Below are positions 2,669 through 58,341 of a DNA stretch of 64,000 bases, in pieces (within the stretch, counting starts at the first letter, position 1; each line of letters begins with the position of its first letter). A program made the position numbers and the translations under genes. This stretch comes from a virus. The stretch spans positions 29,151-93,150 of the IMG/VR virus record IMGVR_UViG_3300025121_000886. One strand, 5' to 3'. A model generated the notes under the pieces. The model ran no database searches, had not been told where the DNA came from, and was given only the letters and a program-made list of their open reading frames with translations.

Positions 2669-4636
2669 ATGTTTTCTAAAAAACAGCATAATAGATATGG
2701 ATCGGCCTCTTATGGATCTAAAGATGTAAGGAGAGGGTCTTATAATATCAATCGTTTTAATCCACAACGGTTTTCCCTAGAAGCGGGTTCTATCGTAGAA
2801 CAGTCTCTTCCTAGAGACCCCGTGGGCTTAAATAAATTACACAAAATGATTTATTTAAGGGGGTCAATAGCTGGACCAGCCGTTGATCTGTATAAGACAC
2901 TTCCTTGGTCTGATTGGACTATCTCCGGTTTGAAAGATCCCAAAATAAAACGTATTTATGAAGATTGCTTAAATGCTTTAGATGTCAAGGGGTTGATGCC
3001 TCATATAACTGGTGAATATTTAATTTTTGGTAGAAGTATTGTTTCATTATTGTTTGATGAGACAAAGGGGTATTTTACAAGTTCAATAGTACAAGATCAA
3101 GATTTTTGTAGGATAACACCAATATTTGTCGAGGGATTTGACCCTAAAATTGATGTTATGCCTACACCGGGGATGAGACAATTTATAGCCTCAAAGGATC
3201 CCAGAGATTTAGAGGCTAAAAAACGTCTTCCTAAAGAATTGTTAAAGCAACTTCGAACAAATAGCTATATACCTTTAGAACCGGCTAATACTTTATTTTT
3301 ACCAAGAAGAGCATTTGGTACAGATCATCTAGGAACTTCTTATTATTCTAGATTGATAGATACCTGGGCTTTAAGGGTGGGTTTGATAAATGCTCAATTA
3401 ATACAGGTTAAAAGAAGAGCTGGTGCTATTCGTCATGCAGTTGTTGGCACGGATAATTGGGAGCCAAATTCAGATGAGATGGAAGATATTGCGGGTACAA
3501 TTTTGCAAGCAGATGAAGATCCTGTTGGGGCAGTTATTGTCACCAGACAGGGTGTAGAAATAGGGGAGGTTCCTGGTGCTGGCGGGGGTGCAGTATGGAA
3601 AATGGCTGATGAATGGTCATACATTATGGAGACAGAACTTAGATCTTTAGGTTTAAGTGAAACTTTTCTAACGGGTGATGCTACTTATGGTCAATTAGAG
3701 ATGGCAACATCAGCTTTTGTAGAACAATTACTTGCCCTCAGATGGTATTTAACCAAGAAAACTATTATTGATAAAATATTGACGACTGTAGCTAGAGTCA
3801 ACCAAATATATAAAACTACATCATCTGAGCTGGATTTAGGTATAAGGACAAGTGTGTCTTTACGTGCTAAAACTGAAGAAGTTGGTTTTGAGGATTTGTT
3901 GTTACCGAGGTTTGAATGGAATAAGAAATTTAAACCAATTTCTGATGAAACTTATATGGGTATTTTAGGTACTATGGAAGAGAAAGGTCTTCCTGTAACA
4001 CTTCAATCGTGGGCAACAGCTGGTGGATTTGATATAGATAGAGAAATGGATCTGTTACCAGAAGACATTAAATTAAGAAAAAAAGTCTCTGAGTATAAAA
4101 AGAAAATACCTAATTCGGGCGGTGATGATGAATTCGGTGGTGGAGATTTTGGAGGGGGTGGGGATGAGACAGAAGCTTCTCATAAATTACAGTCCAAAGA
4201 TCCTATGTGGAAAAATGGAAAATTTATAGATTTAGACATCAACACTTTTTCTAATATTTTAGCAAGAAGCTTTACAAGTAAAGAGTTACAGGAATTGTCC
4301 GCAAAAGATAATAGAAAGGAGATAATTTCTGAAAAAATAGGTCAGAGAAATGCTGAATTATCTGAAGTGATGTTAATGCGCTTAGGTGTTTTTAAACCAA
4401 GAGAAATTTCACCCGAGATAAATAATGAAGTTGTTAGGTGGATTATTGATTCAGATATATCAGGACAAGAGATGCTTAGAGAGTTATATAAATTATCTAA
4501 GATAAGTAGAAATGGTAAAACTGTTTCATCGAGAGAAATGTCCGGTTTGTTGTCATCAGCTGCATGTACCTGTGGTAAAGAAATTGGTGATCAGCCTGAT
4601 AAATCTCATTTATTGTTGTCTGGTGCAATAGATTAA
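2669..4636 (+). CDS. Portal protein
   Basis: Forms the ring at the head vertex through which DNA enters and leaves. Seen: 655 residues with portal-like order, an N-terminal alpha/beta part, a central segment around TDHLGTSYYSRLID followed by long helices, and an SETFLTGDATYGQLE stretch leading to the hydrophobic helix EQLLALRWYL, as in large myovirus portals. A glycine/acid-rich linker at about residues 480-505 precedes a C-terminal extension that ends in a CTCG motif. The identity rests on these features plus position between terL and the protease. The extension beyond the portal core is unusual and may be a separately folded or cleaved tail. Confidence 0.85.
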   Translation: MFSKKQHNRYGSASYGSKDVRRGSYNINRFNPQRFSLEAGSIVEQSLPRDPVGLNKLHKMIYLRGSIAGPAVDLYKTLPWSDWTISGLKDPKIKRIYEDCLNALDVKGLMPHITGEYLIFGRSIVSLLFDETKGYFTSSIVQDQDFCRITPIFVEGFDPKIDVMPTPGMRQFIASKDPRDLEAKKRLPKELLKQLRTNSYIPLEPANTLFLPRRAFGTDHLGTSYYSRLIDTWALRVGLINAQLIQVKRRAGAIRHAVVGTDNWEPNSDEMEDIAGTILQADEDPVGAVIVTRQGVEIGEVPGAGGGAVWKMADEWSYIMETELRSLGLSETFLTGDATYGQLEMATSAFVEQLLALRWYLTKKTIIDKILTTVARVNQIYKTTSSELDLGIRTSVSLRAKTEEVGFEDLLLPRFEWNKKFKPISDETYMGILGTMEEKGLPVTLQSWATAGGFDIDREMDLLPEDIKLRKKVSEYKKKIPNSGGDDEFGGGDFGGGGDETEASHKLQSKDPMWKNGKFIDLDINTFSNILARSFTSKELQELSAKDNRKEIISEKIGQRNAELSEVMLMRLGVFKPREISPEINNEVVRWIIDSDISGQEMLRELYKLSKISRNGKTVSSREMSGLLSSAACTCGKEIGDQPDKSHLLLSGAID

Positions 4637-21348: not shown

Positions 21349-22593
21349 TTGTATAAAACGCAATCAAATCAGATTAAGAATATGAATAAAGACACCTATA
21401 ATCTTTTAAGAAGGTTGTGTTGGCATTCAGCGCGTTTGTACAATTACGGTCTATATACTGTAAGACAGAATTATTTTGAGACGAAGACATATTTACCTTA
21501 TGTGCAAAATTATCATTATTGTAAGACCAATGAGAATTTTAAGGTTTTACCAGCAGCTGTAGCACAGCAGACGTTAAAGGTTGTAGATAGGAGCTTTAAG
21601 TCTCTTTTTGGGCTTTTGAATGCTAAGAAGCACAGTAAATATCAGAGTCGTGTGTCTATCCCACATTATTTACCAAAAGATGGATATTTTCAGGTCATGA
21701 TACCTAACAATGGGTTTCAGATTAAGGGTAATGAGATAAACATAGGTATATCGAGGTTTTTGAAGGAAGATACTGGGATTAAAAATATAGTATTAGATTT
21801 TCCGACACAGATTAATGCTAAAGATGTAATAGAAGTAAGGATAATACCGCAACAGAAGGCACATTACTTTAAAATGGAGGTGGTATATGAGGTAAAAGAA
21901 CAAGAATTAAAGCTAGAGCATAAAAATGTTTTATCGATTGATATAGGTCTAAATAATTTAGCGACATGTTTTGATACAAAGAACAATAGGGCTTTCATCT
22001 TAGATGGAAGGCGTTTAAAATCAATAAATTACTATTGGAATAAACAAAACAGTAAGCTACAAAGTATCAAAGATAAACAAAACATCAGGAATTATACGAA
22101 ACAACAATTTTTACTGAAGAGGAAGAGAGAAAATAGGATTAAAGACATAATAAGAAAGAGCTCTAAGTATATTTCTGATTATTGTATTAAGAATGACATA
22201 GGGACGATAATTATAGGACACAATAAAGGTTGGAAGCAAGACATTAATCTTGGAAGGGTGAATAATCAGAAGTTTGTACAGGTACCTTTTGGATATTTGA
22301 TGTCAAGCCTTGAGTCTAAATGTGAAGAGTTTGGTATGAAGTATTCAGAGATACAAGAGTCCCATACTTCTCTATGTTCGGCTTTAGATAATGAGGAAGT
22401 TAAACATCATGATGTTTATATGGGGAAGCGTATATACAGAGGGCTTTTTAGAAGTAGAGAAGGAAAGCTCGTTAATGCTGATGTTAATGGTGCTCTAAAT
22501 ATTGCTAGGAAGTCAAAAGTAACTGCAATGGAGGTAACTTCTGAGCAGGTAATGGGTATTGTGGCATACCCTGTAAGAATAAGGGTATTTTAG
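21349..22593 (+). CDS. tnpB: TnpB-family RNA-guided nuclease (IS605 OrfB)
   Basis: Transposon-encoded RNA-guided DNA nuclease that helps retain the element. Seen: 414 residues; RuvC-like catalytic triad in SIDIGLNNLAT (D198), EIQESHTS (E337) and NADVNGALNI (D378). The usual four-Cys zinc finger between the last two motifs is reduced to one Cys (TSLCSALDNEE), as in a distinct TnpB subgroup. Start is a TTG with AGGA about 10 bases upstream; the next candidate is ATG 21382. The 3' end probably overlaps the guide (omega) RNA. It reads in the same direction as the flanking late genes. Confidence 0.9.
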   Translation: MYKTQSNQIKNMNKDTYNLLRRLCWHSARLYNYGLYTVRQNYFETKTYLPYVQNYHYCKTNENFKVLPAAVAQQTLKVVDRSFKSLFGLLNAKKHSKYQSRVSIPHYLPKDGYFQVMIPNNGFQIKGNEINIGISRFLKEDTGIKNIVLDFPTQINAKDVIEVRIIPQQKAHYFKMEVVYEVKEQELKLEHKNVLSIDIGLNNLATCFDTKNNRAFILDGRRLKSINYYWNKQNSKLQSIKDKQNIRNYTKQQFLLKRKRENRIKDIIRKSSKYISDYCIKNDIGTIIIGHNKGWKQDINLGRVNNQKFVQVPFGYLMSSLESKCEEFGMKYSEIQESHTSLCSALDNEEVKHHDVYMGKRIYRGLFRSREGKLVNADVNGALNIARKSKVTAMEVTSEQVMGIVAYPVRIRVF

Positions 22594-38779: not shown

Positions 38780-39124
38780 ATGTATCAAAGATTAGAAATC
38801 AATCAAAAGGTGTTTCTCCAAAAAATACCAGAGACCATAAAGGAATTCAAGAAAGAAGCACCCTTAGAAAATGGCGTAATAACAGAGGTGAATAATATTT
38901 ATTTTAAGGTCAACGATCGGTATAGATTTTTCACAGAAACACATAAACAGGTGAAAAAAGCATATCATAAACCTTACAAAGTGTATTTCTCAGAAGTTGA
39001 ATACAGAGAAGATGCTAAAAGAAAATCTCTGCTAAATGAATTTCTAGAAAAAATCGACCGTCTTCTAGAAAATGATTCTCTGACAATTGAGCAGATAAAA
39101 AATTTGATTAGAGCGATAGCCTAA
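38780..39124 (+). CDS. Small hypothetical protein
   Basis: 114 residues. MYQRLEINQKVFLQKIPETI opens a short beta/helix region; the last 40 residues are helical (LLNEFLEKIDRLLENDSLTI). Weak ribosome site AGCAGAAG. No known family. Confidence 0.5.
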   Translation: MYQRLEINQKVFLQKIPETIKEFKKEAPLENGVITEVNNIYFKVNDRYRFFTETHKQVKKAYHKPYKVYFSEVEYREDAKRKSLLNEFLEKIDRLLENDSLTIEQIKNLIRAIA

Positions 39125-39213: not shown

Positions 39214-39396
39214 ATGTCTATGGCTACAAAAACAGCATATAAACGGCAAACAAAAAGAAAACATAAGCCAACAAGTAAAGGTAAACAAAAATATAAACAA
39301 TTAAAAAAGACTTTAAAAGGGCCAAAAAAGCTTCACGTTCTTAAAGTTAGAAAAATTTGGATGAAAAAAAATAAAAATAAGCTAAAGAAAAAATAG
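39214..39396 (+). CDS. Very basic small protein
   Basis: 60 residues, about 45 percent Lys/Arg (AYKRQTKRKHKPTSKGKQKY), ending NKLKKK. Good TGGAGGTAA site. Such proteins can bind nucleic acid and may be packaged with DNA or act on the host nucleoid; unproven. Confidence 0.5.
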   Translation: MSMATKTAYKRQTKRKHKPTSKGKQKYKQLKKTLKGPKKLHVLKVRKIWMKKNKNKLKKK

Positions 39397-39530: not shown

Positions 39531-41231
39531 ATGTTAGGAGAATTTGATCCTATCCTACAAGAAGCTCTAGGAAAAGAATATTGGAGGGTTTATCACCCCT
39601 TTTATAAAGATAAAAAAAATAAACCACCCGAGTATGATGAAGGTCTTGTACTTCCAATCGATTACTTCACAAAAATATTAGGTGAACACCATATAGAACA
39701 CAAAGGATTACGCGTTTTAGAACTTGGTTGTGCTACTGGTATATCAGTCAATATTATGAGAAAAACTGGGATAAATGCTTTCGGTATCGAAATTTCTAAT
39801 TATATTCTCAATCAAGATCAATTAATCCCACCTGAAGTGAAACCATATATCTATCATATGGATATCAGAAATCTTGATATTTTTCCGGATAAAGCTTTCG
39901 ATTTATGCTGGAGCAATTCTATTGTACACATCCCACCTGAAAACATTCAAAAACATTTAACAGACATATCAAGAATATCTGAATATTTCTTTGTACATAC
40001 AATTTGTGAGGAAGATCCTTTCGGACGCTATCTATTATCCTGTGAAAATGAAAAGAGAGAGAGAATGATCTGGCATGGATTAAAATCTTGGCCTTGGTGG
40101 AAATATCAATTTGCTAAGGCTGGTTGGTGCCATCTAGGAGTAACATTTCCCCCTTATTGGAGTGGTTGGAATTTATTCTGTAACACAGCCTTTGAGAAGA
40201 GGTATATAAAGGGAGCAAATGAACTTCTTCTAAACGAAACAATAAAAGAAAACTCAGAGAGTAAGTATCCAAGACAAGGAGATATACTCTCTTTATTCAT
40301 CGGTGAAGAATCCCTGAGAATAAAAGGAGCTAATTCTATTGATTTTTCCTCATCTTTTGCCAATGGTCTAAAACCACTCTATGATCGATATGTTTATAGA
40401 CCTAAAAAATATATCTGGGGTGACAAAACTGTTATGATCCTAGATAATGAAATGGGGGATAATTATATAGATGAATTGGCAGAACTGACAAAAATTCATG
40501 GTAATATATTAGGTGTAACCCCAAATATAGCAAAAAAACTTCAAAAGATAGATAATTTTTATAGATATACCTTAAGAGAACCCTTATTTTCTGTAAAGAA
40601 TATCTTAGCCTTGAGAAGTCAAAGATATTATGAAATCAGAGCAGGAAAGAAACTATATGAAAATAGATTGATGTATAAAAATATCTTTTCTGAAGACCTC
40701 GATATCCCTAAAATTCTAGAATTTATCTACAAAAGCTGGGAGATCATTTTGGAGAAAGATGTTTCTTATAACGTACGTATTAACATAGCTGATTATACTC
40801 CCTGGTATAAATATCTCTATAATAGCCTAAAATTTGTGGATAAAAATGATTTATTAAACACAATACCCACATTTAAGATATTAGAAAAATATGTAGACAA
40901 CCCCGAATGTATTATTTTAGACCCCTCTATGATACATGGGGAAGTTATTTATGATAAAGACAACATTGTTGCTCTATGGTTAACATACAGGGCAACCCCC
41001 AAAGTTTCTATGCAAGCAATCAGATTTTCTGATCTTACCTATAAATTTTTATCCGATTACATAATCTATAGATCTGCATTAAATCAACCAGATGAAGTCG
41101 AGTTCATAAATGATATGGGGGTCACAAAAGAAGAAAAATTATTTGATTTTAAAAATCGATATGCTGAGATGTATACAAAAAATATAATACTTCAATACAG
41201 ACATCGAAGAAAAGGAGAAAATAAAGAATGA
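39531..41231 (+). CDS. SAM methyltransferase fused to an acyl/aminoacyl-transferase-like domain, copy 1
   Basis: 566 residues. Residues of about 55-200 are a class I SAM methyltransferase: motif I VLELGCATG (about 63-70), GIEIS (85-89), MDIRNLDIF (110-118) and FDLCWSNSIVHIP. From about residue 270 a second domain carries LALRSQRYYEIRAGKKLYEN and ends in DEVEFINDMGVTKEEKLFDF; this last pattern (vNDxG..., then FKxRY) resembles the GNAT-like domain of DUF2156/LPG-synthase and FemAB-type aminoacyl transferases. The stop overlaps the start of its paralogue (ATGA). The substrate is unknown; DNA-base, glycan or protein modification are all possible. Confidence 0.72.
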   Translation: MLGEFDPILQEALGKEYWRVYHPFYKDKKNKPPEYDEGLVLPIDYFTKILGEHHIEHKGLRVLELGCATGISVNIMRKTGINAFGIEISNYILNQDQLIPPEVKPYIYHMDIRNLDIFPDKAFDLCWSNSIVHIPPENIQKHLTDISRISEYFFVHTICEEDPFGRYLLSCENEKRERMIWHGLKSWPWWKYQFAKAGWCHLGVTFPPYWSGWNLFCNTAFEKRYIKGANELLLNETIKENSESKYPRQGDILSLFIGEESLRIKGANSIDFSSSFANGLKPLYDRYVYRPKKYIWGDKTVMILDNEMGDNYIDELAELTKIHGNILGVTPNIAKKLQKIDNFYRYTLREPLFSVKNILALRSQRYYEIRAGKKLYENRLMYKNIFSEDLDIPKILEFIYKSWEIILEKDVSYNVRINIADYTPWYKYLYNSLKFVDKNDLLNTIPTFKILEKYVDNPECIILDPSMIHGEVIYDKDNIVALWLTYRATPKVSMQAIRFSDLTYKFLSDYIIYRSALNQPDEVEFINDMGVTKEEKLFDFKNRYAEMYTKNIILQYRHRRKGENKE

Positions 41232-42850
41232 TAGGTGAATTTGACGAAAAAACACAATCCGCTTTTAATTCATACTATTTTGACAATTATTCTAAAGAAG
41301 GATATGGGGGAGAACGATCGGTTTTAAATATAGAAAACTTTTTATTAGTCCTTAAACAAGCAAAAATAATAATACCCGATAGAAAAAAGTTTAGAATATT
41401 AGAATTGGGTTGTGCTGATGGCAGAACAGTAAAAGAGTTAAGAGATTTAGGCTTTGATGCTTACGGTATTGAAATAAGTCAACATATGCTAAAAAAGGTT
41501 GAGCCTGAAATAAAAAAGTATATTTACTTTATGGATATCAGAAATCTAGAAATATTTAAAGATGATTCTTTCGATCTGGTGTATAGCAACAGTCTAATGT
41601 ATCTTAATCCAGAGGAACTTGATAATCATCTGGATGAACTTCATAGAATAAGCAAATACATTTTTGCACATATTCTATGCAAGGAAGATGCTTTTGTAAA
41701 ATATTTAGAGAAAGAAGATTCAGAAAAACTGTATTCTTATATCTCAAACTATAAAGAATTTCCAGAGATGGAATTCCTTTTTGCTACACATGGGTGGGAG
41801 TATGAAACACATATAATGCCAGAAGGATGGTCCGGATGGAATCTTTTTTGTAAAAATAGTTATGGAAAAGGGATGAGTAGATTAAAAACATATCTAGCTT
41901 CATCTGGAATATCTGAATTTACCGTGTTTGCCAGAGATTCTTTACAAAAAAGAAAAAAATCTGGGATAGAAACTTCCAGAAATATAACAGCTGGTCTCTG
42001 CATGAATAGAGCATTACAGTTTTGTAGATATCAATATCAATTTTTCATCCTAGATCAAGGATTTCATCCTCTTGTAACTGATCCTAATCAAATTACAGAA
42101 GGGGCTAAAGAATATTTAAAAAATTTAGATATAACTTCAATTTATGGAATTCCTGAAAAATTTGTAGATATTTTCACAGAATGTGGTTATAGAATAATTA
42201 ATGAAATGAAAGACCCTCTGTTTTCAATATCCAAGATATTAGAGGCATCTGGAAATAAATATCAAGAGATAAGAACCGCAAGAAAATTATATGAAGATGT
42301 CAACCCCCCTACACATAGCACAAAGCACATAAATCAGCTAAACTTCAGAAGTTTTTTTAGAGATAATGAAAAAGGCTATCTTGAATTACAAGATTTTGTA
42401 AAAAGACAAATAATAGAAATATCTAAGAAGCCAGATTTTACTATATTTTCTCTAAGAATATTGTCTAATGTATATTTAACTTATAAAAAGATATTGGAAG
42501 ATTTATATCACGAAATAAATTGTCCAGATACCTATAATTTACACGAATCTTGTATATTTGATACAAGCTGTGTAAATGGAGAGATTACCACAGATTCTGA
42601 TAAAATAATAGGATTTTGGTTAACCGCTCAAATGAATTCTGATACAGCCCTTCAAATATTTAGATTAGCAGATAGGTATTATACTTATTTAGCTGATTAT
42701 CTGGTTTATAGATCAGCCTGGGGACAGTTAAGGGATGTAGAATATATGAATGACATTGGTTTATTAGAAGAAGAACAACAAAACTTAAATATTTTTAAAG
42801 AAAGATATAAAGAGAAAGAAGTCATTTGCTTCAAAGCGGTAAAAATCTGA
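41228..42850 (+). CDS. SAM methyltransferase fused to an acyl/aminoacyl-transferase-like domain, copy 2
   Basis: 540 residues, tandem paralogue with the same two-domain plan: ILELGCADG (about 57-65), YGIEISQHML, MDIRNLEIFKDDSFDLVYSN, and in the second domain SGNKYQEIRTARKLYEDVN and DVEYMNDIGLLEEEQQNLNI. Sequence identity to copy 1 is clear but moderate, implying separate substrates or subunits of one complex. The 4-base overlap implies equal, coupled expression. Last gene of the + block; its stop faces the convergent zinc protein 3 bases away. Confidence 0.72.
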   Translation: MIGEFDEKTQSAFNSYYFDNYSKEGYGGERSVLNIENFLLVLKQAKIIIPDRKKFRILELGCADGRTVKELRDLGFDAYGIEISQHMLKKVEPEIKKYIYFMDIRNLEIFKDDSFDLVYSNSLMYLNPEELDNHLDELHRISKYIFAHILCKEDAFVKYLEKEDSEKLYSYISNYKEFPEMEFLFATHGWEYETHIMPEGWSGWNLFCKNSYGKGMSRLKTYLASSGISEFTVFARDSLQKRKKSGIETSRNITAGLCMNRALQFCRYQYQFFILDQGFHPLVTDPNQITEGAKEYLKNLDITSIYGIPEKFVDIFTECGYRIINEMKDPLFSISKILEASGNKYQEIRTARKLYEDVNPPTHSTKHINQLNFRSFFRDNEKGYLELQDFVKRQIIEISKKPDFTIFSLRILSNVYLTYKKILEDLYHEINCPDTYNLHESCIFDTSCVNGEITTDSDKIIGFWLTAQMNSDTALQIFRLADRYYTYLADYLVYRSAWGQLRDVEYMNDIGLLEEEQQNLNIFKERYKEKEVICFKAVKI

Positions 42851-42853
42851 TAT

Positions 42854-43393
42854 TTAGATGAAACCCAACCAAGAAACACTCGTTTTATTTTGATCATATA
42901 ATATTTCTAAAATATGAGTATCTTCTTCCCCACATTGTTCACACAAAAACTCGATATTAATACAATCATCTCCAGCACACTCTTTTGGTTCAAACCTTGA
43001 GGTTAGCACACCCCCACGATTAAAAATAGAGACCGTTCCTGGACCAGCCTCTTTATCCCTGAAGAATGATTTAACTGATTTCTGAGTTAAATTTATGCCT
43101 CCACATCGAGGACATAATAAAGCATCACCTTTCAACTGTATTGATTTTGATACGGGTATTAGCATCTTTTTTTCAAACCAACCATTTTTCAAAATAACCC
43201 ATTTCCCACCTTTATAATCAACACGCTTGTCTATTACTGCTCTTTCTTGATCTTCATTCATGACTTTTTCAGGACATTCTGTGGGCAAAGAACTTTCTGC
43301 TCCCCCACAAACGGTACAGTGTTTTAACCCACCATCACAAATAAAACAAGAATCAAGTTGACAACCAATGTGTTCTTCAAAAATATGTTCCAT
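42854..43393 (-). CDS. Two-module zinc-binding protein
   Basis: 179 residues. N-terminal module CFICDGGLKHCTVCGGAESS then LPTECPEKVM is a zinc motif common in small phage proteins. The C-terminal module has LLCPRCGGINLTQ and CAGDDC...FLCEQCGEED, a second zinc ribbon. AAAGGATAAAAG before ATG. Possibly nucleic-acid binding; unknown role. Confidence 0.65.
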   Translation of the reverse strand: MEHIFEEHIGCQLDSCFICDGGLKHCTVCGGAESSLPTECPEKVMNEDQERAVIDKRVDYKGGKWVILKNGWFEKKMLIPVSKSIQLKGDALLCPRCGGINLTQKSVKSFFRDKEAGPGTVSIFNRGGVLTSRFEPKECAGDDCINIEFLCEQCGEEDTHILEILYDQNKTSVSWLGFI

Positions 43394-44228: not shown

Positions 44229-47200
44229 GTGAAATTTAACCCAAATTTAGAAGCTTACATAAAATCTATATCTATAAAATTTTCTCGAAAAGAAACAAGT
44301 GAAATGGGCTACCGCTCTGATTTTGAAGTTTTAATTAAAAATATTTTAGAACCGATCATAAATAACCTCAAAATAGATCATGATGCCAAGGCTCAAGAAG
44401 GAAACAAGCCAGACTTTATCCTTTCAGAGGGTGATTTACCAATTTTATACATAGAAACAAAAAATATAGGGGTATCTTTAGATAAATCAGAAAAATCTAA
44501 GCAATTAAATCGATATTATAATTATACAAACCTGATTCTAACCGATTATATCGAATTCAGATTTTATAGAAATGGATATCAATATAACAAACCAATAAAA
44601 ATTGCTCACTATGATATAAAAAACCGAACCTTGCTACCAATAGCAGAAAACTTTAAAGATGTCATAGATACAATAATAAACATGGCAAAATCCTATAAAG
44701 AACCTATTAGATCAAGCAAACGTCTTGCCGAAATAATGGGAGGAAAAGCAAAAAGAATCCGGGATGAAATAAAAAGCTATGTTTTTGAAGAAACAAAAAA
44801 AAATGAAAACATCTTAAAATTATACAAAATAATAAAAGATCAACTTGTTTCAAATTTAACCATAGATTCATTTGCTGATATGTATGCACAGACCATTGTC
44901 TATGGCTTATTTATAGCGAAGTTTAATAATGATATAAAAAATAGTTTTAATAGACAGATAGCCAGAGACCTAATTCCAGAATCAAACTCTTTATTAAGAC
45001 ACTTTTTTGATCATATTACAGGTGCTGATTTTGATAAAAGATTAGAGTATATTGTTAATGAATTATGTGATTTGTTTTCATGTACCGACATAAAAAAAAT
45101 AATGATGGAAGATTACTCTAAAGATGACTTTGACTGTGATCCTATAATACACTTTTATGAAAACTTTCTGCAAGAATATGATATTAATATCAAAAAAAAG
45201 TTTGGAGCATTTTATACACCTTCCCCAATAGTCAATTTTATTGTTAAATCTGTTGATTATCTTTTACAGAATGAGTTTGATATTAAATTAGGTATAGCGA
45301 GTACATTAAAACTCGAAAATGGAGACCACCGAGTTCAAATATTAGATCCTTCTGTAGGTACAGGAACTTTTCTTGACAAAGTTATTTCAATTATTCATGA
45401 AAAGCTATGTAAATCAAGTCAAGGAGGAAGATGGACAAAATATGTTAATGATAATGTTCTCCCACGTATACACGGCTTTGAAATTATGATGACTCCTTAT
45501 ATAATTGCACATTTAAAATTAAGAATGACTTTATACCAAACAAAATGTGAAACCATAGACAATAAAATTAATATTTATTTGACAAACTCTTTAGATGAAA
45601 AAGTTTTACAAAAAGAATTATTTTCCGATTTCGGTTTTTTGGGAAGTATTGCAATGGAATCAAAAGAAGCCGCAGTAATAAAGAATGAGAAACCAATCAT
45701 GGTTGTTATTGGAAACCCACCGTATAGTGTAAGTTCTTCAAATAAAGGTAAATGGATACAGAATTTAATCAAGGACTATAAGAAAGACCTTGGTGAACGA
45801 AAGATAAACCTTGATGATGACTATATCAAATTCATTCGCTTCGCCGAACATTTCATAGAAAAAAACAACGGTGGTATCGTGGCGATGATAACTAATAATT
45901 CATTTATAGACGGTATTACCCATCGCCAAATGAGGAAACATCTCCTTGACACATTTGATGATATTTACATCTTTGATCTTCACGGCAGTTCAAAGAAAAA
46001 AGAAAAAGCGCCTGATGGGGGGAAGGATGAGAATGTATTTGATATTCAACAAGGAGTGTCGATTTCTATATTTATACGCAGAGTAGGAGAAAAGAAAGGT
46101 CTCGCCATTGTTCATCATACTGAGTTATACGGCAAGAGGGCGGATAAATTTCATATGCTCAACGAAAGCGATATACAGACAGTTAAGTGGAAGAATCTTG
46201 ATTACTCCGAACCATATTATTTCTTTGTGCCGAAAGATTTTGGGTTGGAAGAGGAATACGGAAAGGGATTTAAGATTGATGAGTTGTTTAGAGTCTCGAA
46301 TTCCGGTGTAAAGACAGACCGGGACACGTTGTTTATTGATATGGATAAGAGTGTATTGGAAAAGCGGATTCAAAAACTTCTTTCAGAAGATTATGATGAG
46401 AATTTCAAACAAGAATTTCGTGTCTTCAATTCGGGAAGTTATAAATTAACGGAAAAAGTGAAGGGGAAATCGTTTGATGAGAATTATGTACAGCCTGTCC
46501 AATATAGACCATTCGATTATCAGTGGATTTATTATGATCCTTCTTTGGTCAGTCGTCCTGCAAATAAAGTAATGTCGCATATTGTCGGAAAAGAAAATAT
46601 GGCCATTGTTACTGCTCGTCAATTTGGTGGTGGCTCACATTTTATCTGTCTTATCACAAAAACTGTATCTGAGATTAGTTCTCAACCTTATGCCCCATAT
46701 ACCCTTTTTCCTATTTATCTCTACTCCAAAGACGGCTCGTGTGTACCAAATATCAAAAAAGAAATTGTCGATGAGATTGAAAATATTGTCGGTAAAGTAT
46801 CTCCTGAAAATATCTTCGATTATATTTACGCCGTTCTCCACTCCCCCAGTTATCGAGAAAAATATAAGGAATTTCTGAAAATTGATTTTCCACGGGTATC
46901 ATATCCGAAAGACGCTGAAAGTTTTAAAGAGCTTATCGCCTTTGGTGCTGAATTACGTTCACTCCACCTCCTTGAATCCCCAAAGGTAAACCAATTCATC
47001 ACTACGTATCCCATTGAAGGCTCAGATACCATTGAAAAATTAGCTTACAAAGACGGCAATGTATTTATTAACAAAGATCAGTACTTTGGCAACGTTCCAG
47101 AGATTGCATGGAATTTTTACATTGGAGGCTATCAACCAGCACAAAAATGGTTAAAAGACCGAAAAGAACGAGTCCTCAATAATGAAGATATTGAACATTA

Positions 47201-47276
47201 TCAGAAAATCATTGTAGCACTAACAGAAACGGATAGAATCATGAAGAAAATAGATCAAGCATTTATCTGTCCATAA
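44229..47276 (+). CDS. Type IIG/ISP-like restriction-modification enzyme
   Basis: Single-chain nuclease plus adenine methyltransferase. Seen: 1015 residues. N-terminal PD-(D/E)XK nuclease with PDFIL (D62) and YIETKN (E76, K78); helical linker; N6-adenine methyltransferase with GAFYTP (326-331), motif I ILDPSVGTGTFL (371-382) and motif IV GNPPYS (495-500); then a target-recognition region to the end. GTG start behind AAAGGGAGATGAT. Up to about 45,770 the codons are AT-rich like the phage; from about 45,780 they become clearly richer in G and C, suggesting recent acquisition or recombination of the specificity half. Could methylate phage DNA and cut competitors. Confidence 0.88.
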   Translation: MKFNPNLEAYIKSISIKFSRKETSEMGYRSDFEVLIKNILEPIINNLKIDHDAKAQEGNKPDFILSEGDLPILYIETKNIGVSLDKSEKSKQLNRYYNYTNLILTDYIEFRFYRNGYQYNKPIKIAHYDIKNRTLLPIAENFKDVIDTIINMAKSYKEPIRSSKRLAEIMGGKAKRIRDEIKSYVFEETKKNENILKLYKIIKDQLVSNLTIDSFADMYAQTIVYGLFIAKFNNDIKNSFNRQIARDLIPESNSLLRHFFDHITGADFDKRLEYIVNELCDLFSCTDIKKIMMEDYSKDDFDCDPIIHFYENFLQEYDINIKKKFGAFYTPSPIVNFIVKSVDYLLQNEFDIKLGIASTLKLENGDHRVQILDPSVGTGTFLDKVISIIHEKLCKSSQGGRWTKYVNDNVLPRIHGFEIMMTPYIIAHLKLRMTLYQTKCETIDNKINIYLTNSLDEKVLQKELFSDFGFLGSIAMESKEAAVIKNEKPIMVVIGNPPYSVSSSNKGKWIQNLIKDYKKDLGERKINLDDDYIKFIRFAEHFIEKNNGGIVAMITNNSFIDGITHRQMRKHLLDTFDDIYIFDLHGSSKKKEKAPDGGKDENVFDIQQGVSISIFIRRVGEKKGLAIVHHTELYGKRADKFHMLNESDIQTVKWKNLDYSEPYYFFVPKDFGLEEEYGKGFKIDELFRVSNSGVKTDRDTLFIDMDKSVLEKRIQKLLSEDYDENFKQEFRVFNSGSYKLTEKVKGKSFDENYVQPVQYRPFDYQWIYYDPSLVSRPANKVMSHIVGKENMAIVTARQFGGGSHFICLITKTVSEISSQPYAPYTLFPIYLYSKDGSCVPNIKKEIVDEIENIVGKVSPENIFDYIYAVLHSPSYREKYKEFLKIDFPRVSYPKDAESFKELIAFGAELRSLHLLESPKVNQFITTYPIEGSDTIEKLAYKDGNVFINKDQYFGNVPEIAWNFYIGGYQPAQKWLKDRKERVLNNEDIEHYQKIIVALTETDRIMKKIDQAFICP

Positions 47277-48788: not shown

Positions 48789-49991
48789 TCAATCAAACAG
48801 TTTTTTCATCGAGGTAATAACAACATTCAATAAATTATTTTTCTTATCCCTAAGCTTTTCTCGGGCTATTCTATTTTCTGCCAACTTTATATAATTTGGA
48901 TTTAACTCTATCCCAATATAATCCTTTCCTTGATCTTTAGCTACAATACCGACCGTCCCACTCCCAAAGAAAGGATCTAAGACAACCCCCGGTCTAAAAC
49001 CGACATCACAGTTACAACAAGCCTCTTCTCTAAAAGGAACATCACATTTTAGGCATACTTTTTCCGGACACCCTGCATCTAAGGGAGATATTATCAATTT
49101 TTTTGGAAAAGTGGCAAAATGCGACCCTCCCTGAAAACTCTCTGTATTTATATCCCACACCGATCTTTTATTTTTACCTTTGGGGTTTGGACGCATATTT
49201 CTATCATGATAAATTTTTTGACCTGTACCTTCATCCCACAAGCTAACACCTTTGGCATTCAAATTATCCCCACCCCATCTATCTAAGGGTTTTGTATATG
49301 GATCAAATTGTTGTTTAAAAAAATAATTTTTATTCTTAGAGAAAAAGAATAGATATTCAAAGTCAACAGTGTACCTATTAGAAACCGGACTGGGTATACA
49401 ATTAGGCTTTCTCCAAATAATAGTATTTCTGAGCAAAAAACCTTTTTTAATCATACCCAATGCAAAAAGAAATGGTATTCCTACTAAAGATTGTGTTCTA
49501 ACAGGAGTCTCATTAACACCACCCCTATAACCTTGTAATTTACCCCAACTCCCCCCATAGGTATCCCCAATGTTTACCCAACAAGTCCCATCATCTCGTA
49601 AAACACGACATACTCCATCAAAAATATCACATAAATTATCAATAAATAAATCAGGGTTTGGCTCATTTCCTAAAGAACCCAGCCAAGCTTTACAGTATAC
49701 ACAAAATCTTCCATGATCGATAAATACCTCATTAATACTCTTTTTTTGATTACCTACAGTCGCACTTGACCCTGAGCTGTTCCCACGCTGTCTCGACATC
49801 ATCTCCCCTCCCCAAACATGCTTACAAGAAACATCCCCACCCCATATTAAAGGTTCTGTCTTGTAATTTCTCAAGCCCCAATAAGGAGGAGACGTGATAC
49901 ACGTATTAATACTATTATCTGGAATGTTTTCTAATACCTCCAGAGAATTTCCTTGATGTATTTTATTTAAAAACTCTTTAATATCTCTCAT
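48789..49991 (-). CDS. DNA methyltransferase (amino-group, TSPPY type)
   Basis: Modifies adenine-N6 or cytosine-N4. Seen: 400 residues; motif IV TSPPYWGL (33-40) comes first and motif I DPFFGSGTVG (339-348) near the end, the beta-type order. A zinc-like insertion (FCVYC at 97-100) and a second one (CLKCDVPF, CCNCDVGF) split the usual fold. Overlaps the macro-domain stop by one base (TAATG), so the two are translationally coupled. Without a matching nuclease here it probably protects phage DNA against host restriction. Confidence 0.9.
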   Translation of the reverse strand: MRDIKEFLNKIHQGNSLEVLENIPDNSINTCITSPPYWGLRNYKTEPLIWGGDVSCKHVWGGEMMSRQRGNSSGSSATVGNQKKSINEVFIDHGRFCVYCKAWLGSLGNEPNPDLFIDNLCDIFDGVCRVLRDDGTCWVNIGDTYGGSWGKLQGYRGGVNETPVRTQSLVGIPFLFALGMIKKGFLLRNTIIWRKPNCIPSPVSNRYTVDFEYLFFFSKNKNYFFKQQFDPYTKPLDRWGGDNLNAKGVSLWDEGTGQKIYHDRNMRPNPKGKNKRSVWDINTESFQGGSHFATFPKKLIISPLDAGCPEKVCLKCDVPFREEACCNCDVGFRPGVVLDPFFGSGTVGIVAKDQGKDYIGIELNPNYIKLAENRIAREKLRDKKNNLLNVVITSMKKLFD

Positions 49992-50476
49992 TAAACAACT
50001 TCCACTTTTTCAGACTTTTTCTTTTCGAGCAAGACCAGCGTATGTTTCTCATCTTTGAACTCTTCATCAATCATCTTCTTAATAAATTTCCAATCTCCAC
50101 CAGCTAAACCAGCACCAATCTTAGGATATGCTATACGCTTTCCATGAAAAGTTTCTTTAACTTTCCGTAAACAACTCCTTAACGCTTCATAAGAAACTCT
50201 TCTACCATTGCCACCCTTATAATGAAATTGTGTATAACAATTTACAACCATAAATTTATGGCCATTGCGCTCAACAAGAGCATAAGATATTTTTCCCAAC
50301 TTTTTGGGATCACCCTTTGGGGTCTTTAAATCTGCCAAAAAAGCTTCTTTAAAAGTGTTTTTAATCTCTAACGCTATACCTGCACCCATTGTACAATAGC
50401 AATTACAACCATGTAATATAATATCAAAATCACCATTGGAAGCCATTTCTAACAAGTTTCCTGTGACAACCTCCAT
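49991..50476 (-). CDS. Macro domain protein (ADP-ribose binding/hydrolysing)
   Basis: 161 residues, whole protein is one macro domain. Seen: VVTGNLLEM start, LHGCNCYCTMGAGIALEIK at about 21-39 (substrate-binding loop), and YPKIGAGLAGGDWKFIKKM in the second half. Family members bind or remove ADP-ribose from proteins, nucleic acids or ADP-ribose-1''-phosphate. Coupled to the methyltransferase and next to the ART-like gene; may remove ADP-ribose marks placed by host defence (DarT-type) or by the phage itself (inference). Confidence 0.88.
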   Translation of the reverse strand: MEVVTGNLLEMASNGDFDIILHGCNCYCTMGAGIALEIKNTFKEAFLADLKTPKGDPKKLGKISYALVERNGHKFMVVNCYTQFHYKGGNGRRVSYEALRSCLRKVKETFHGKRIAYPKIGAGLAGGDWKFIKKMIDEEFKDEKHTLVLLEKKKSEKVEVV

Positions 50477-53136: not shown

Positions 53137-54210
53137 TTAAAGAAAATTTTTGTAGGCTCTGTGAAAGTTATCAAAGTGTGCATAATCACCTGTCAAAAAG
53201 GACAAACATTTTTTTAGGATCAATGCTGCTGTCATCTCAGTTATATTTTGATCTTTTATTGGACAAATTTCAACAATGTCCATTCCAATAATATTTATAC
53301 ATCTATCTCGACCTGTACCTAAATAAAAAAGTCGTTTTAAAATATACATTAATTGACTCCACAATAAACCACCATTTGGAGAAGGTAATCCCACATTTGG
53401 GGCAATACTGGTATGAAGTGCGCTCATATCTATTGAAATATAAACGTCACCTTTTAATTTATTTAAGATATCATCATAACATCGATTTTCAGGCCGTTCT
53501 TGACTTAATAAGCCCAATTTATCATAGGGGATATCTATGATGTCTTCTTCTGAAGATCGTATTATTTTTAGCTCTTCTTCAGATAAATTTCTTTGACCTA
53601 TAAACATCAATTTATAACCAAGCTCATGAACTCTCCTCATAACACAACCGTGTGTGAATGCACTGTTCTTCCCATCATGAAATAAGATATTCTCAGAATC
53701 CTTCAGATTATACCTAGAATCAATGCTCACTACTGTCGTATCTTTTATATTCTTGATTATATTTGACTTCTTAAGTATATTCAAAAAGGTGTATGTGACA
53801 GTATGTTCCCCACCTATTCCTATAAAAAATGGTGTAAAAAATCTTTCTTCTGAATTTCTTGAAATAACCCTATTCTTTGAGGGATTCTTCCACTTCCCAA
53901 ACTTTTCACTCATATCCTTTATTAAATTATTCAAAATAGTTTCAGGATAGTCTGATGAACGGTGCATAAAGCTTCTATCTTCTGAAAAAACTGATTGGTG
54001 CAAAGCCAAGTTCTCAAAGGGGTTTTGACGCGTGATCTCGTCTAAAAGATCAATTTTAAAAGAAGCATTATAAACAGCTAAAGGACCACCTAAAACACCT
54101 CTAGAATCTGAAGTATACTTCTCATAAGGTACTGAAAAAACAATCACATCAGATTCATTTATTGGATTATTTTTCTGCCCAAAAATTGTAAAACCGTGTT
54201 CATAAAACAT
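53137..54210 (-). CDS. Ureohydrolase (arginase/agmatinase) family protein with lost metal ligands
   Basis: 357 residues. Family signatures are present in order: FFIGIGGEHTVTY (His136), VVSIDSRYNLKDSE where the family has DAHxDxxD, FTHGCVMRRV where the family has SHGxxxRR, and ISIDMSALHTSIAPNVGLPS then PNGGLLWSQL where the family has DxDxxDPxxAPGxxxPxPGGL. First Asp residues remain (D164, D261) but the His/Asp partners are Arg/Asn/Ser, so normal Mn-dependent hydrolysis is unlikely. Possibly a binding protein or an enzyme with altered chemistry. Good GGGAGGAATAGA site. Confidence 0.75.
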   Translation of the reverse strand: MFYEHGFTIFGQKNNPINESDVIVFSVPYEKYTSDSRGVLGGPLAVYNASFKIDLLDEITRQNPFENLALHQSVFSEDRSFMHRSSDYPETILNNLIKDMSEKFGKWKNPSKNRVISRNSEERFFTPFFIGIGGEHTVTYTFLNILKKSNIIKNIKDTTVVSIDSRYNLKDSENILFHDGKNSAFTHGCVMRRVHELGYKLMFIGQRNLSEEELKIIRSSEEDIIDIPYDKLGLLSQERPENRCYDDILNKLKGDVYISIDMSALHTSIAPNVGLPSPNGGLLWSQLMYILKRLFYLGTGRDRCINIIGMDIVEICPIKDQNITEMTAALILKKCLSFLTGDYAHFDNFHRAYKNFL

Positions 54211-57254: not shown

Positions 57255-58145
57255 TTAATATCCAATACCGCATAATGTCTCAACGAATTTGTCTGTATTG
57301 ATATTTACAGATATAAAAGTATTCGTCCCATCTTTTAAGCGCGATCCCCAAAATCGCTTATTTTCCACAAATAATTCTACCTCTTTAAACTCACAAACAT
57401 CCCTGTCTATCAAACAACATGCTGCCAGAGGATCATGAAACTTTTTACCTGTAGGACATTTATCAAGATAGAAATCCATACCATCATAAACCATACGAAT
57501 ACCAGGATTTGCATTTTTATGAGATTCAACCTGAGCATGTAATTTTTTATCATAAAATACAGCATGTGTCACATTTTTAGACACAAGATATCGTTTTTTA
57601 ATAAGATCGGTTTTGAGCATAAAAAGTGCCTGGGGTATCCCACCATTAAAATTATAAGTTTGAACCGTTTCCATACCTTTAAAACGGGGGCAATAAACGG
57701 GTGCAATATTATCACCTGCAAAACCACCTTGACCAAACCACATACTTAGTGGAACAGAAGACAATTCTAAAAGAGCGTCATAAGGATTGTGTAAAGCTGC
57801 ACCTGTGATTATAATTAGATTAGGATAGACAATTCTCTCACAATTTATAACATCGGCCGCTCGACCATCAGGTACATATGGTTTCCATTCTCCCAATAAA
57901 TTATGATGAAAAGCCGATACACAAGATTTACCTTTATAATTTGGAATTCTGCTTCCTATAGAGATCAATTTTGATCTATCGGGCAAAAGTATGTTTAGAA
58001 TATGTCTAATAAGCCCGCACTGCTCATCAGAACCAGGATTGGCAGTAACCGCCCGAACATTTACATTTGGATGCCCTGCTAAGAAGCATAGCATAAAATA
58101 ATCATCTGGATCCTGTGTTTCCATATCTATGATTACATCTAACAT
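57255..58145 (-). CDS. Inosine-uridine-type nucleoside hydrolase
   Basis: Splits nucleosides into base and ribose, or acts on related N-ribosyl compounds. Seen: 296 residues; N-terminal VIIDMETQDPDDYFML (Asp-rich Ca site), VNVRAVTANPGSDEQC, central ITGAALHNPYDALLELS, and late GKKFHDPLAACCLID with the catalytic-region HDPLA. ATG 58145 has AAGGAGAATTTT, better than an upstream GTG-like start. Likely nucleotide salvage, degradation of modified nucleosides, or NAD-related chemistry. It lies near macro/ART genes but not in the same unit. Confidence 0.85.
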   Translation of the reverse strand: MLDVIIDMETQDPDDYFMLCFLAGHPNVNVRAVTANPGSDEQCGLIRHILNILLPDRSKLISIGSRIPNYKGKSCVSAFHHNLLGEWKPYVPDGRAADVINCERIVYPNLIIITGAALHNPYDALLELSSVPLSMWFGQGGFAGDNIAPVYCPRFKGMETVQTYNFNGGIPQALFMLKTDLIKKRYLVSKNVTHAVFYDKKLHAQVESHKNANPGIRMVYDGMDFYLDKCPTGKKFHDPLAACCLIDRDVCEFKEVELFVENKRFWGSRLKDGTNTFISVNINTDKFVETLCGIGY

Positions 58146-58155
58146 AAAATTCTCC

Positions 58156-58341
58156 TTAAATGATACTTCCACCCAATAAATAGGCTTGAGTCAATTTTTC
58201 ATCGTGGACGGTCGCATTAAAAAAATGAGCTTTTTCTTTCTCATACTCTTTTTCACATTTTTCTGAACACACAAAATCCCCATCCCGACTTATTAATATA
58301 CCTTTTGTGTGGAAATTTCTTTGACATTGAAAACATTTCAT
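58156..58341 (-). CDS. Zinc-finger miniprotein
   Basis: 61 residues. MKCFQCQRNF and FVCSEKCEKEYEKE give a treble-clef-like four-Cys site. AAGGAGAATTTTA before ATG. Ends 11 bases before the nucleoside hydrolase start. Confidence 0.55.
   Translation of the reverse strand: MKCFQCQRNFHTKGILISRDGDFVCSEKCEKEYEKEKAHFFNATVHDEKLTQAYLLGGSII

What the first reader, a model, noticed from the sequence alone, without database searches (positions are those of the whole stretch)
39531..42850. Tandem methyltransferase fused to acyl/aminoacyl-transferase-like domain
Two adjacent, overlapping genes encode the same rare architecture: a class I SAM methyltransferase followed by a domain whose last part (vNDxG then FKxRY) resembles LPG-synthase/FemAB/GNAT enzymes. 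Duplicated fusion enzymes in a phage imply a two-step or two-subunit modification pathway, perhaps of a hypermodified DNA base, a glycan or a protein. I know of no described phage system with this pair.
Basis: partly seen in the sequence, partly recalled or inferred. Interest (0 to 1): 0.65.

Follow-up and report, generated by a model that had tools for sequence, protein, structure and literature searches.

The report
Paired phage methyltransferase–tandem-acyltransferase fusion enzymes
A large bacterial virus carries two neighbouring sister genes, each joining a methyl-transferring enzyme to a distant relative of a family whose characterised members attach amino acids taken from tRNA to lipids; we found this combination nowhere else, and what it modifies is unknown.

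Summary
ORFs 39531-41231 (566 aa) and 41228-42850 (540 aa) overlap by ATGA and are full-length paralogues (32% identity, E 1e-75). Each has an intact class I SAM-methyltransferase domain (about residues 1-220). The C-terminal part has no Pfam, NCBIfam, PHROG or PDB sequence hit. Profile-profile comparison places it in a divergent branch of LPG_synthase_C/DUF2156 (stand-alone, COG4866-like; solved relative 2HQY). P0002 scores P = 2.7e-6 over 187 columns and the pair P = 2e-5 over 214; against a smaller profile no shuffle (0 of 200) reached the real score. Among about 1,280 bacterial genomes, roughly 100 relatives of the C-terminal domain looked stand-alone, with no methyltransferase fused in those inspected. 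No phage or IMG/VR relative of the fusion was found. Function is unproven. I favour a two-step tailoring enzyme pair (acyl or aminoacyl transfer plus methylation) acting on a glycan, lipid headgroup or small molecule. DNA hypermodification is not excluded, but no such pathway gene was seen. New architecture of known folds; moderate interest.

The parts
39531..41231 (+). Gene A (P0001, 566 aa): class I SAM methyltransferase fused to divergent DUF2156/LPG_synthase_C-like tandem-GNAT domain
39531..40190 (+). Methyltransferase domain of gene A (residues ~1-220): motif I VLELGCATG, acidic end of strand 2 GIEIS, motif IV DLCWSNS; signature WSGWNLFC at the end
   Evidence: Pfam Methyltransf_11 E=1.4e-8; alignment with P0002
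40563..41165 (+). DUF2156-like C-terminal domain of gene A (residues ~345-545); contains PLFSVKNILALRSQRYYEIR and VEFINDMGVTKEEKLFDFKNRY
   Evidence: pair profile vs DUF2156: P=2e-5, 214 columns; gapless 77-column match; gene A alone is weak (P=0.056)
41228..42850 (+). Gene B (P0002, 540 aa): same architecture, overlaps gene A by ATGA
41228..41887 (+). Methyltransferase domain of gene B (residues ~1-220): ILELGCADG, GIEIS, DLVYSNS, WSGWNLFC
   Evidence: Pfam Methyltransf_25 E=2.9e-12
42059..42766 (+). DUF2156-like C-terminal domain of gene B (residues ~278-513); the final motif NDIGLLEEEQQNLNIFKERY runs to about residue 528
   Evidence: hhalign P=2.3e-5 (183 columns), P=2.7e-6 with wider profile; 0/200 shuffles, top of 53 window ORFs

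Best explanation
The two genes are an ancient tandem duplication of a bifunctional soluble tailoring enzyme. The N-terminal Rossmann methyltransferase transfers a methyl group from SAM. The C-terminal part is a divergent DUF2156 (LPG_synthase_C, 2HQY-like) tandem-GNAT acyl/aminoacyl transferase that moves an acyl group, most plausibly an amino acid from aminoacyl-tRNA, to an OH or NH2 of a small acceptor such as a sugar, lipid headgroup or other metabolite. One active site may then methylate what the other has attached, or its acceptor. The overlapping co-translated pair probably makes a heteromer or two enzymes of different specificity, used to alter the host surface or the virion. Shown by sequence: gene order, duplication, methyltransferase domain, DUF2156-family relationship of the C-terminus. 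Inferred only: donor, acceptor, order of steps, complex formation and biological role.
For: Methyltransferase: Pfam/NCBIfam/PHROG hits, SAM motifs intact in both copies. C-terminus: hhalign vs 12 stand-alone DUF2156 proteins P=2.3e-5, 0/200 shuffles, best of 53 window ORFs by twofold score; P=2.7e-6 (88% probability) with 21 more diverse members; the score rises with profile diversity. Collinear alignment over both GNAT halves with N, D, G, L, K, Y invariant. The family is Pfam LPG_synthase_C with solved structure 2HQY. Characterised DUF2156 enzymes use aa-tRNA to aminoacylate lipids (PMC9437257; PMC5898192; PMC11630815). Overlapping start/stop. The methyltransferase of Pelagibacter phage HTVC008M, a weak match, sits in a cluster with carbamoyltransferase and sugar-nucleotide dehydrogenase, and this window has a galactosyltransferase-like gene, which leans towards glycan tailoring.
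Against: No PF09924 hit at gathering level or even at E=10 in a direct search. Gene A alone is weak. Several residues nearly invariant in the stand-alone family (YxY, H and E of IHVEKAD) are not conserved, so donor or acceptor may differ, or activity may be lost. The stand-alone (COG4866-like) subfamily itself has no known function that I found. AlphaFold models failed (pLDDT 33 and 35), so the fold has no structural confirmation. No adjacent partner gene names a substrate; the genes are flanked by unknowns.
Confidence: 0.4

Rival explanations
1. DNA base hypermodification: the pair modifies phage nucleotides or DNA, adding an aminoacyl/acyl group to a base and methylating it, to evade restriction.
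For: GNAT-fold enzymes do modify phage DNA (Mom and other GNAT systems in jumbo phages, PMC7824862). The phage is a jumbo-phage relative and DNA methyltransferases lie near by (Type IIG/ISP enzyme 44229-47276, N6_N4 methyltransferase 48789-49991).
Against: The C-terminus is DUF2156-type, not matched to Mom by any family search. No thymidylate synthase, hydroxymethyl-dU kinase, glutamyl/putrescinyl transferase or other hypermodification gene was seen among the proteins I scanned, though only 93 kb of a probably longer genome is held and many proteins have no hit. The methyltransferase domain has no DNA-methylase family hit (best are small-molecule methyltransferases).
Confidence: 0.12
2. Protein modification: the enzymes acylate/aminoacylate and methylate a host or virion protein (as the GNAT Rac does to RNA polymerase), possibly the small lysine-rich protein encoded just upstream (39214-39396).
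For: Phage GNATs acting on host proteins are known (PMC7824862); a 60-aa very basic ORF lies 134 bases upstream.
Against: The link to the basic protein is only adjacency. Characterised DUF2156 enzymes act on lipids.
Confidence: 0.18
3. The C-terminal domain has lost catalysis and only binds the acceptor or the partner protein; the chemistry is methylation by both N-terminal domains.
For: The methyltransferase part is more conserved between paralogues (44%) than the C-terminal part (35%). H and E of the IHVEKAD motif and the YxY motif of the stand-alone family are replaced in both copies.
Against: Asn, Asp, Gly, Lys and Tyr of the most conserved motif are kept in both copies despite 32% overall identity.
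Confidence: 0.2
4. The C-terminal similarity is chance and the domain is an unrelated new fold.
For: No direct HMM or BLAST hit to PF09924; structure prediction failed.
Against: Profile-profile P down to 2.7e-6, none of 200 shuffles close, collinear over two sub-domains, paralogue-pair profile gives a 77-column gapless match.
Confidence: 0.1

Closest known systems
LPG_synthase_C / DUF2156 (PF09924), stand-alone 2HQY-like subfamily
   Same: Collinear profile match over about 185-215 columns including both GNAT halves; N..DxG....L..K..Y signature kept
   Different: Below Pfam threshold; fused to a methyltransferase; extra insert before the last GNAT half; YxY and IHVEKAD residues replaced; stand-alone members are ~300 aa without partner domain
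MprF / LysX / ErdS aminoacyl-tRNA-dependent lipid aminoacyltransferases
   Same: Same Pfam superfamily of the catalytic domain; LysX and ErdS also show DUF2156 fused to another enzyme (PMC9437257)
   Different: No flippase membrane domain, no aminoacyl-tRNA synthetase domain; profile match to the MprF-type branch is much weaker (score 17.8)
Mom and other GNAT DNA-modification enzymes of (jumbo) phages
   Same: GNAT superfamily enzymes in phage genomes (PMC7824862)
   Different: No sequence match; methyltransferase fusion and tandem GNAT of DUF2156 type not described for them
Methyltransferase of Pelagibacter phage HTVC008M (AGE60493.1)
   Same: Best annotated phage match to the methyltransferase domain (tblastn E 2e-5)
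   Different: 242 aa, methyltransferase only, in a cluster with carbamoyltransferase and sugar genes

Membership tests
Class I SAM methyltransferase (Methyltransf_11/25) | Rossmann SAM-binding motif I (E/DxGxxxG), acidic residue after strand 2, motif IV | tested here: met
   Pfam above cut-off in both proteins; motifs ELGCATG/ELGCADG, GIEIS, DLxxSNS conserved
LPG_synthase_C / DUF2156 (PF09924) | Direct HMM score above gathering cut-off (27.5 bits) | tested here: not met
   No hit at E<=10 in either C-terminus or the 93-kb record
LPG_synthase_C / DUF2156 (PF09924) | Significant collinear profile-profile similarity to family members | tested here: met
   hhalign P=2.3e-5, P=2.7e-6 and 2e-5 with wider profile; shuffle and decoy controls
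LPG_synthase_C / DUF2156 (PF09924) | C-terminal signature N-R-E-x-D-x-G..GLR..K..Y | tested here: inconclusive
   N, D, G, L, K, Y invariant in alignment A5; R/E of NREED and GLR not kept
LPG_synthase_C / DUF2156 (PF09924) | Two tandem GNAT folds in the structure | tested here: inconclusive
   AlphaFold pLDDT 33-35, unusable
MprF-type lipid aminoacyltransferase | N-terminal multi-TM flippase domain | tested here: not met
   N-terminus is a soluble methyltransferase
MprF-type lipid aminoacyltransferase | aa-tRNA-dependent transfer to a lipid | not testable with these tools
   needs biochemistry
FemAB/FemX peptidyl transferases | Pfam FemAB family match | tested here: not met
   No such Pfam match in either C-terminus
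Mom-type DNA acyltransferase | Match to Mom families in PHROGs/Pfam | tested here: not met
   No Mom or other family match in C-termini

The most novel reading that the evidence does not exclude
A phage-encoded, aminoacyl-tRNA-fed modification pathway in which one polypeptide both attaches an amino acid and methylates, run by two paralogous subunits, installing a previously unknown methyl-aminoacyl mark on phage DNA, a virion glycan or a host lipid.
Probability: 0.15. Interest if true: 0.8.

Novelty: new variant of a known kind. Interest (0 to 1): 0.5.

Why it matters
DUF2156-type transferases are known from bacteria, archaea and fungi, where characterised members move amino acids from tRNA onto lipids. 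Finding the domain in a jumbo-phage relative, fused to a methyltransferase and duplicated, would mean that a virus diverts charged tRNA (or acyl donors) to a tailoring reaction. It also gives a ready test of what the uncharacterised stand-alone 2HQY-like branch does.

Tried and rejected
AlphaFold2 on the full pair and on the C-termini only: pLDDT 33-35, so no fold search was run. IMG/VR scans with single proteins, pair alignments and hand-made patterns (WSGWNLFC, VE[FY]xND[IM]G) gave only unrelated methyltransferases, chance matches or a ferritin-like protein family. Genome scans with the pair alignment or the WSGWNLFC pattern: no relatives. PDB search with the C-terminal pair profile: no meaningful hit. 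MprF-type DUF2156 as the closest branch: rejected, score 17.8 against 28.9 for the stand-alone branch. Six long open frames (411-953 aa) around stand-alone DUF2156 genes in one phylum plus one fetched match locus (L125) were inspected for a fused methyltransferase: they are GC-rich read-through, not fusions. Hits of DUF2156 in the 'phages' collection are unannotated faecal contigs, probably bacterial. Defence-system membership: only generic methyltransferase overlap with mad2.

Full report
What is there. The window lies at 29151-93150 of a 93,150-base virus record. Its large terminase is about 30% identical to those of Lu11-, PaBG- and NCTB-like jumbo phages, with portal and major capsid hits. 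GC is 33% and most genes have Shine-Dalgarno-like sites (42 of 51), so the host is probably not a Bacteroidota; it is otherwise unknown. The second starts inside the stop of the first (ATGA). They form an isolated two-gene unit: 134 bases without a listed gene upstream of 39531, and a convergent gene starting 4 bases downstream (42854-43393, minus strand).

The duplication. P0001 and P0002 align end to end (183 of 577 columns identical, E 1e-75). Identity is 44% in the methyltransferase part, 21% in the middle, 35% in the C-terminal part. Both SAM sites look intact: motif I ELGCATG/ELGCADG, GIEIS, and a shared WSGWNLFC signature. Neither copy looks like a dead relic.

The C-terminal domain. 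Direct searches of Pfam, NCBIfam, PHROGs and PDB gave nothing, and PF09924 does not reach E 10 in the record. By eye the segments PLFSIxKILEASGNKYQEIR and VEYMNDIG...FKERY resembled the DUF2156/LPG_synthase_C signatures YVYxxEDLxxLxGRKYxxKRNH and INREEDxGxEGLRKAKxSY. I therefore collected family members from whole genomes and compared profiles. The C-terminal part of P0002 scores 42.7 (P=2.3e-5) over 183 collinear columns against 12 stand-alone members. None of 200 shuffles exceeded 22.5, and the best other window ORF scored 21.5. The two-row profile gives a gapless 77-column match to the last GNAT half, score 28.9, 0 of 200 column shuffles. With nine further, more divergent members the pair scores P=2e-5 over 214 columns and P0002 P=2.7e-6 over 187. 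I did not repeat the shuffle control with that wider profile. In a joint alignment N, D, G, L, K and Y of the terminal motif are invariant. The stand-alone members hit PF09924 and the solved structure 2HQY, a conserved hypothetical protein. I conclude (about 85-90%) that the C-terminus is a divergent DUF2156-type domain. P0001 alone is too diverged to show this by itself (P=0.056), and AlphaFold failed.

How rare is the fusion. Profile A5 was run against five phylum samples (199, 200, 296, 287 and 297 genomes). About 100 sound matches were found and most are single-domain frames of roughly 300 aa. Of the longer frames I inspected six fetched regions and one match locus; the upstream parts are GC-rich read-through without a methyltransferase. 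The remaining longer frames were not inspected. The sample with no match at all (200 genomes) has no positive control. Phage records hold only methyltransferase-domain relatives. IMG/VR scans depend on short exact patterns, so distant relatives could be missed.

What it may do. Characterised DUF2156 enzymes transfer amino acids from aminoacyl-tRNA to lipids (MprF, LysX, ErdS). The stand-alone branch nearest to this domain has no function that I found (one search found no paper under the COG4866 label, which I supply from memory). The methyltransferase's best curated-family matches are small-molecule and phospholipid methyltransferases, all far below their cut-offs. The best-scoring annotated phage methyltransferase sits in a sugar/carbamoyl gene cluster. 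I therefore prefer tailoring of a glycan, lipid headgroup or metabolite, by acyl or aminoacyl transfer plus methylation. This is an inference; donor, acceptor and order of steps are not shown. DNA hypermodification, protein modification and a non-catalytic C-terminus remain open.

Verdict. It is a new architecture built from known folds, of moderate interest.

Noticed in passing
39214-39396 (+): 60-aa extremely lysine-rich ORF with a strong Shine-Dalgarno site, 134 bases upstream of the pair; no family hit. Possible DNA-binding protein or substrate.
   Followed up: partly
44229-47276 (+): 1015-aa Type IIG/ISP-like restriction-methylation enzyme (Type_ISP_C E 5e-85; PADLOC REase_MTase_IIG E 4e-271) carried by the phage; no helicase family hit.
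   Followed up: partly
49991-50476 (-): Macro-domain protein resembling the DarG antitoxin (PADLOC E 3.6e-14), next to a DNA methylase at 48789-49991.
   Followed up: no
53137-54210 (-): Arginase-family protein in a phage (PF00491 E 7e-31); nucleoside hydrolase-like protein at 57255-58172.
   Followed up: no
38780-39124 (+): Phage_ProQ_C_like domain protein (Pfam 34.2 bits, above cut-off).
   Followed up: no
L007:3185-4036 (record position 3185-4036, outside the window): Thg1-type tRNA-His guanylyltransferase in the same phage record (PF04446 E 1.5e-27).
   Followed up: no
L063, L067, L061: Stand-alone DUF2156 (2HQY-like) genes in three bacterial genomes are followed directly by a GNAT (Acetyltransf_9) gene, in two of them with SCP2_2 (Eis-like); a possible conserved functional pair.
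   Followed up: partly
21349-22593 (+): Transposase gene (phrog_506 E 1e-36) inserted among structural genes.
   Followed up: no
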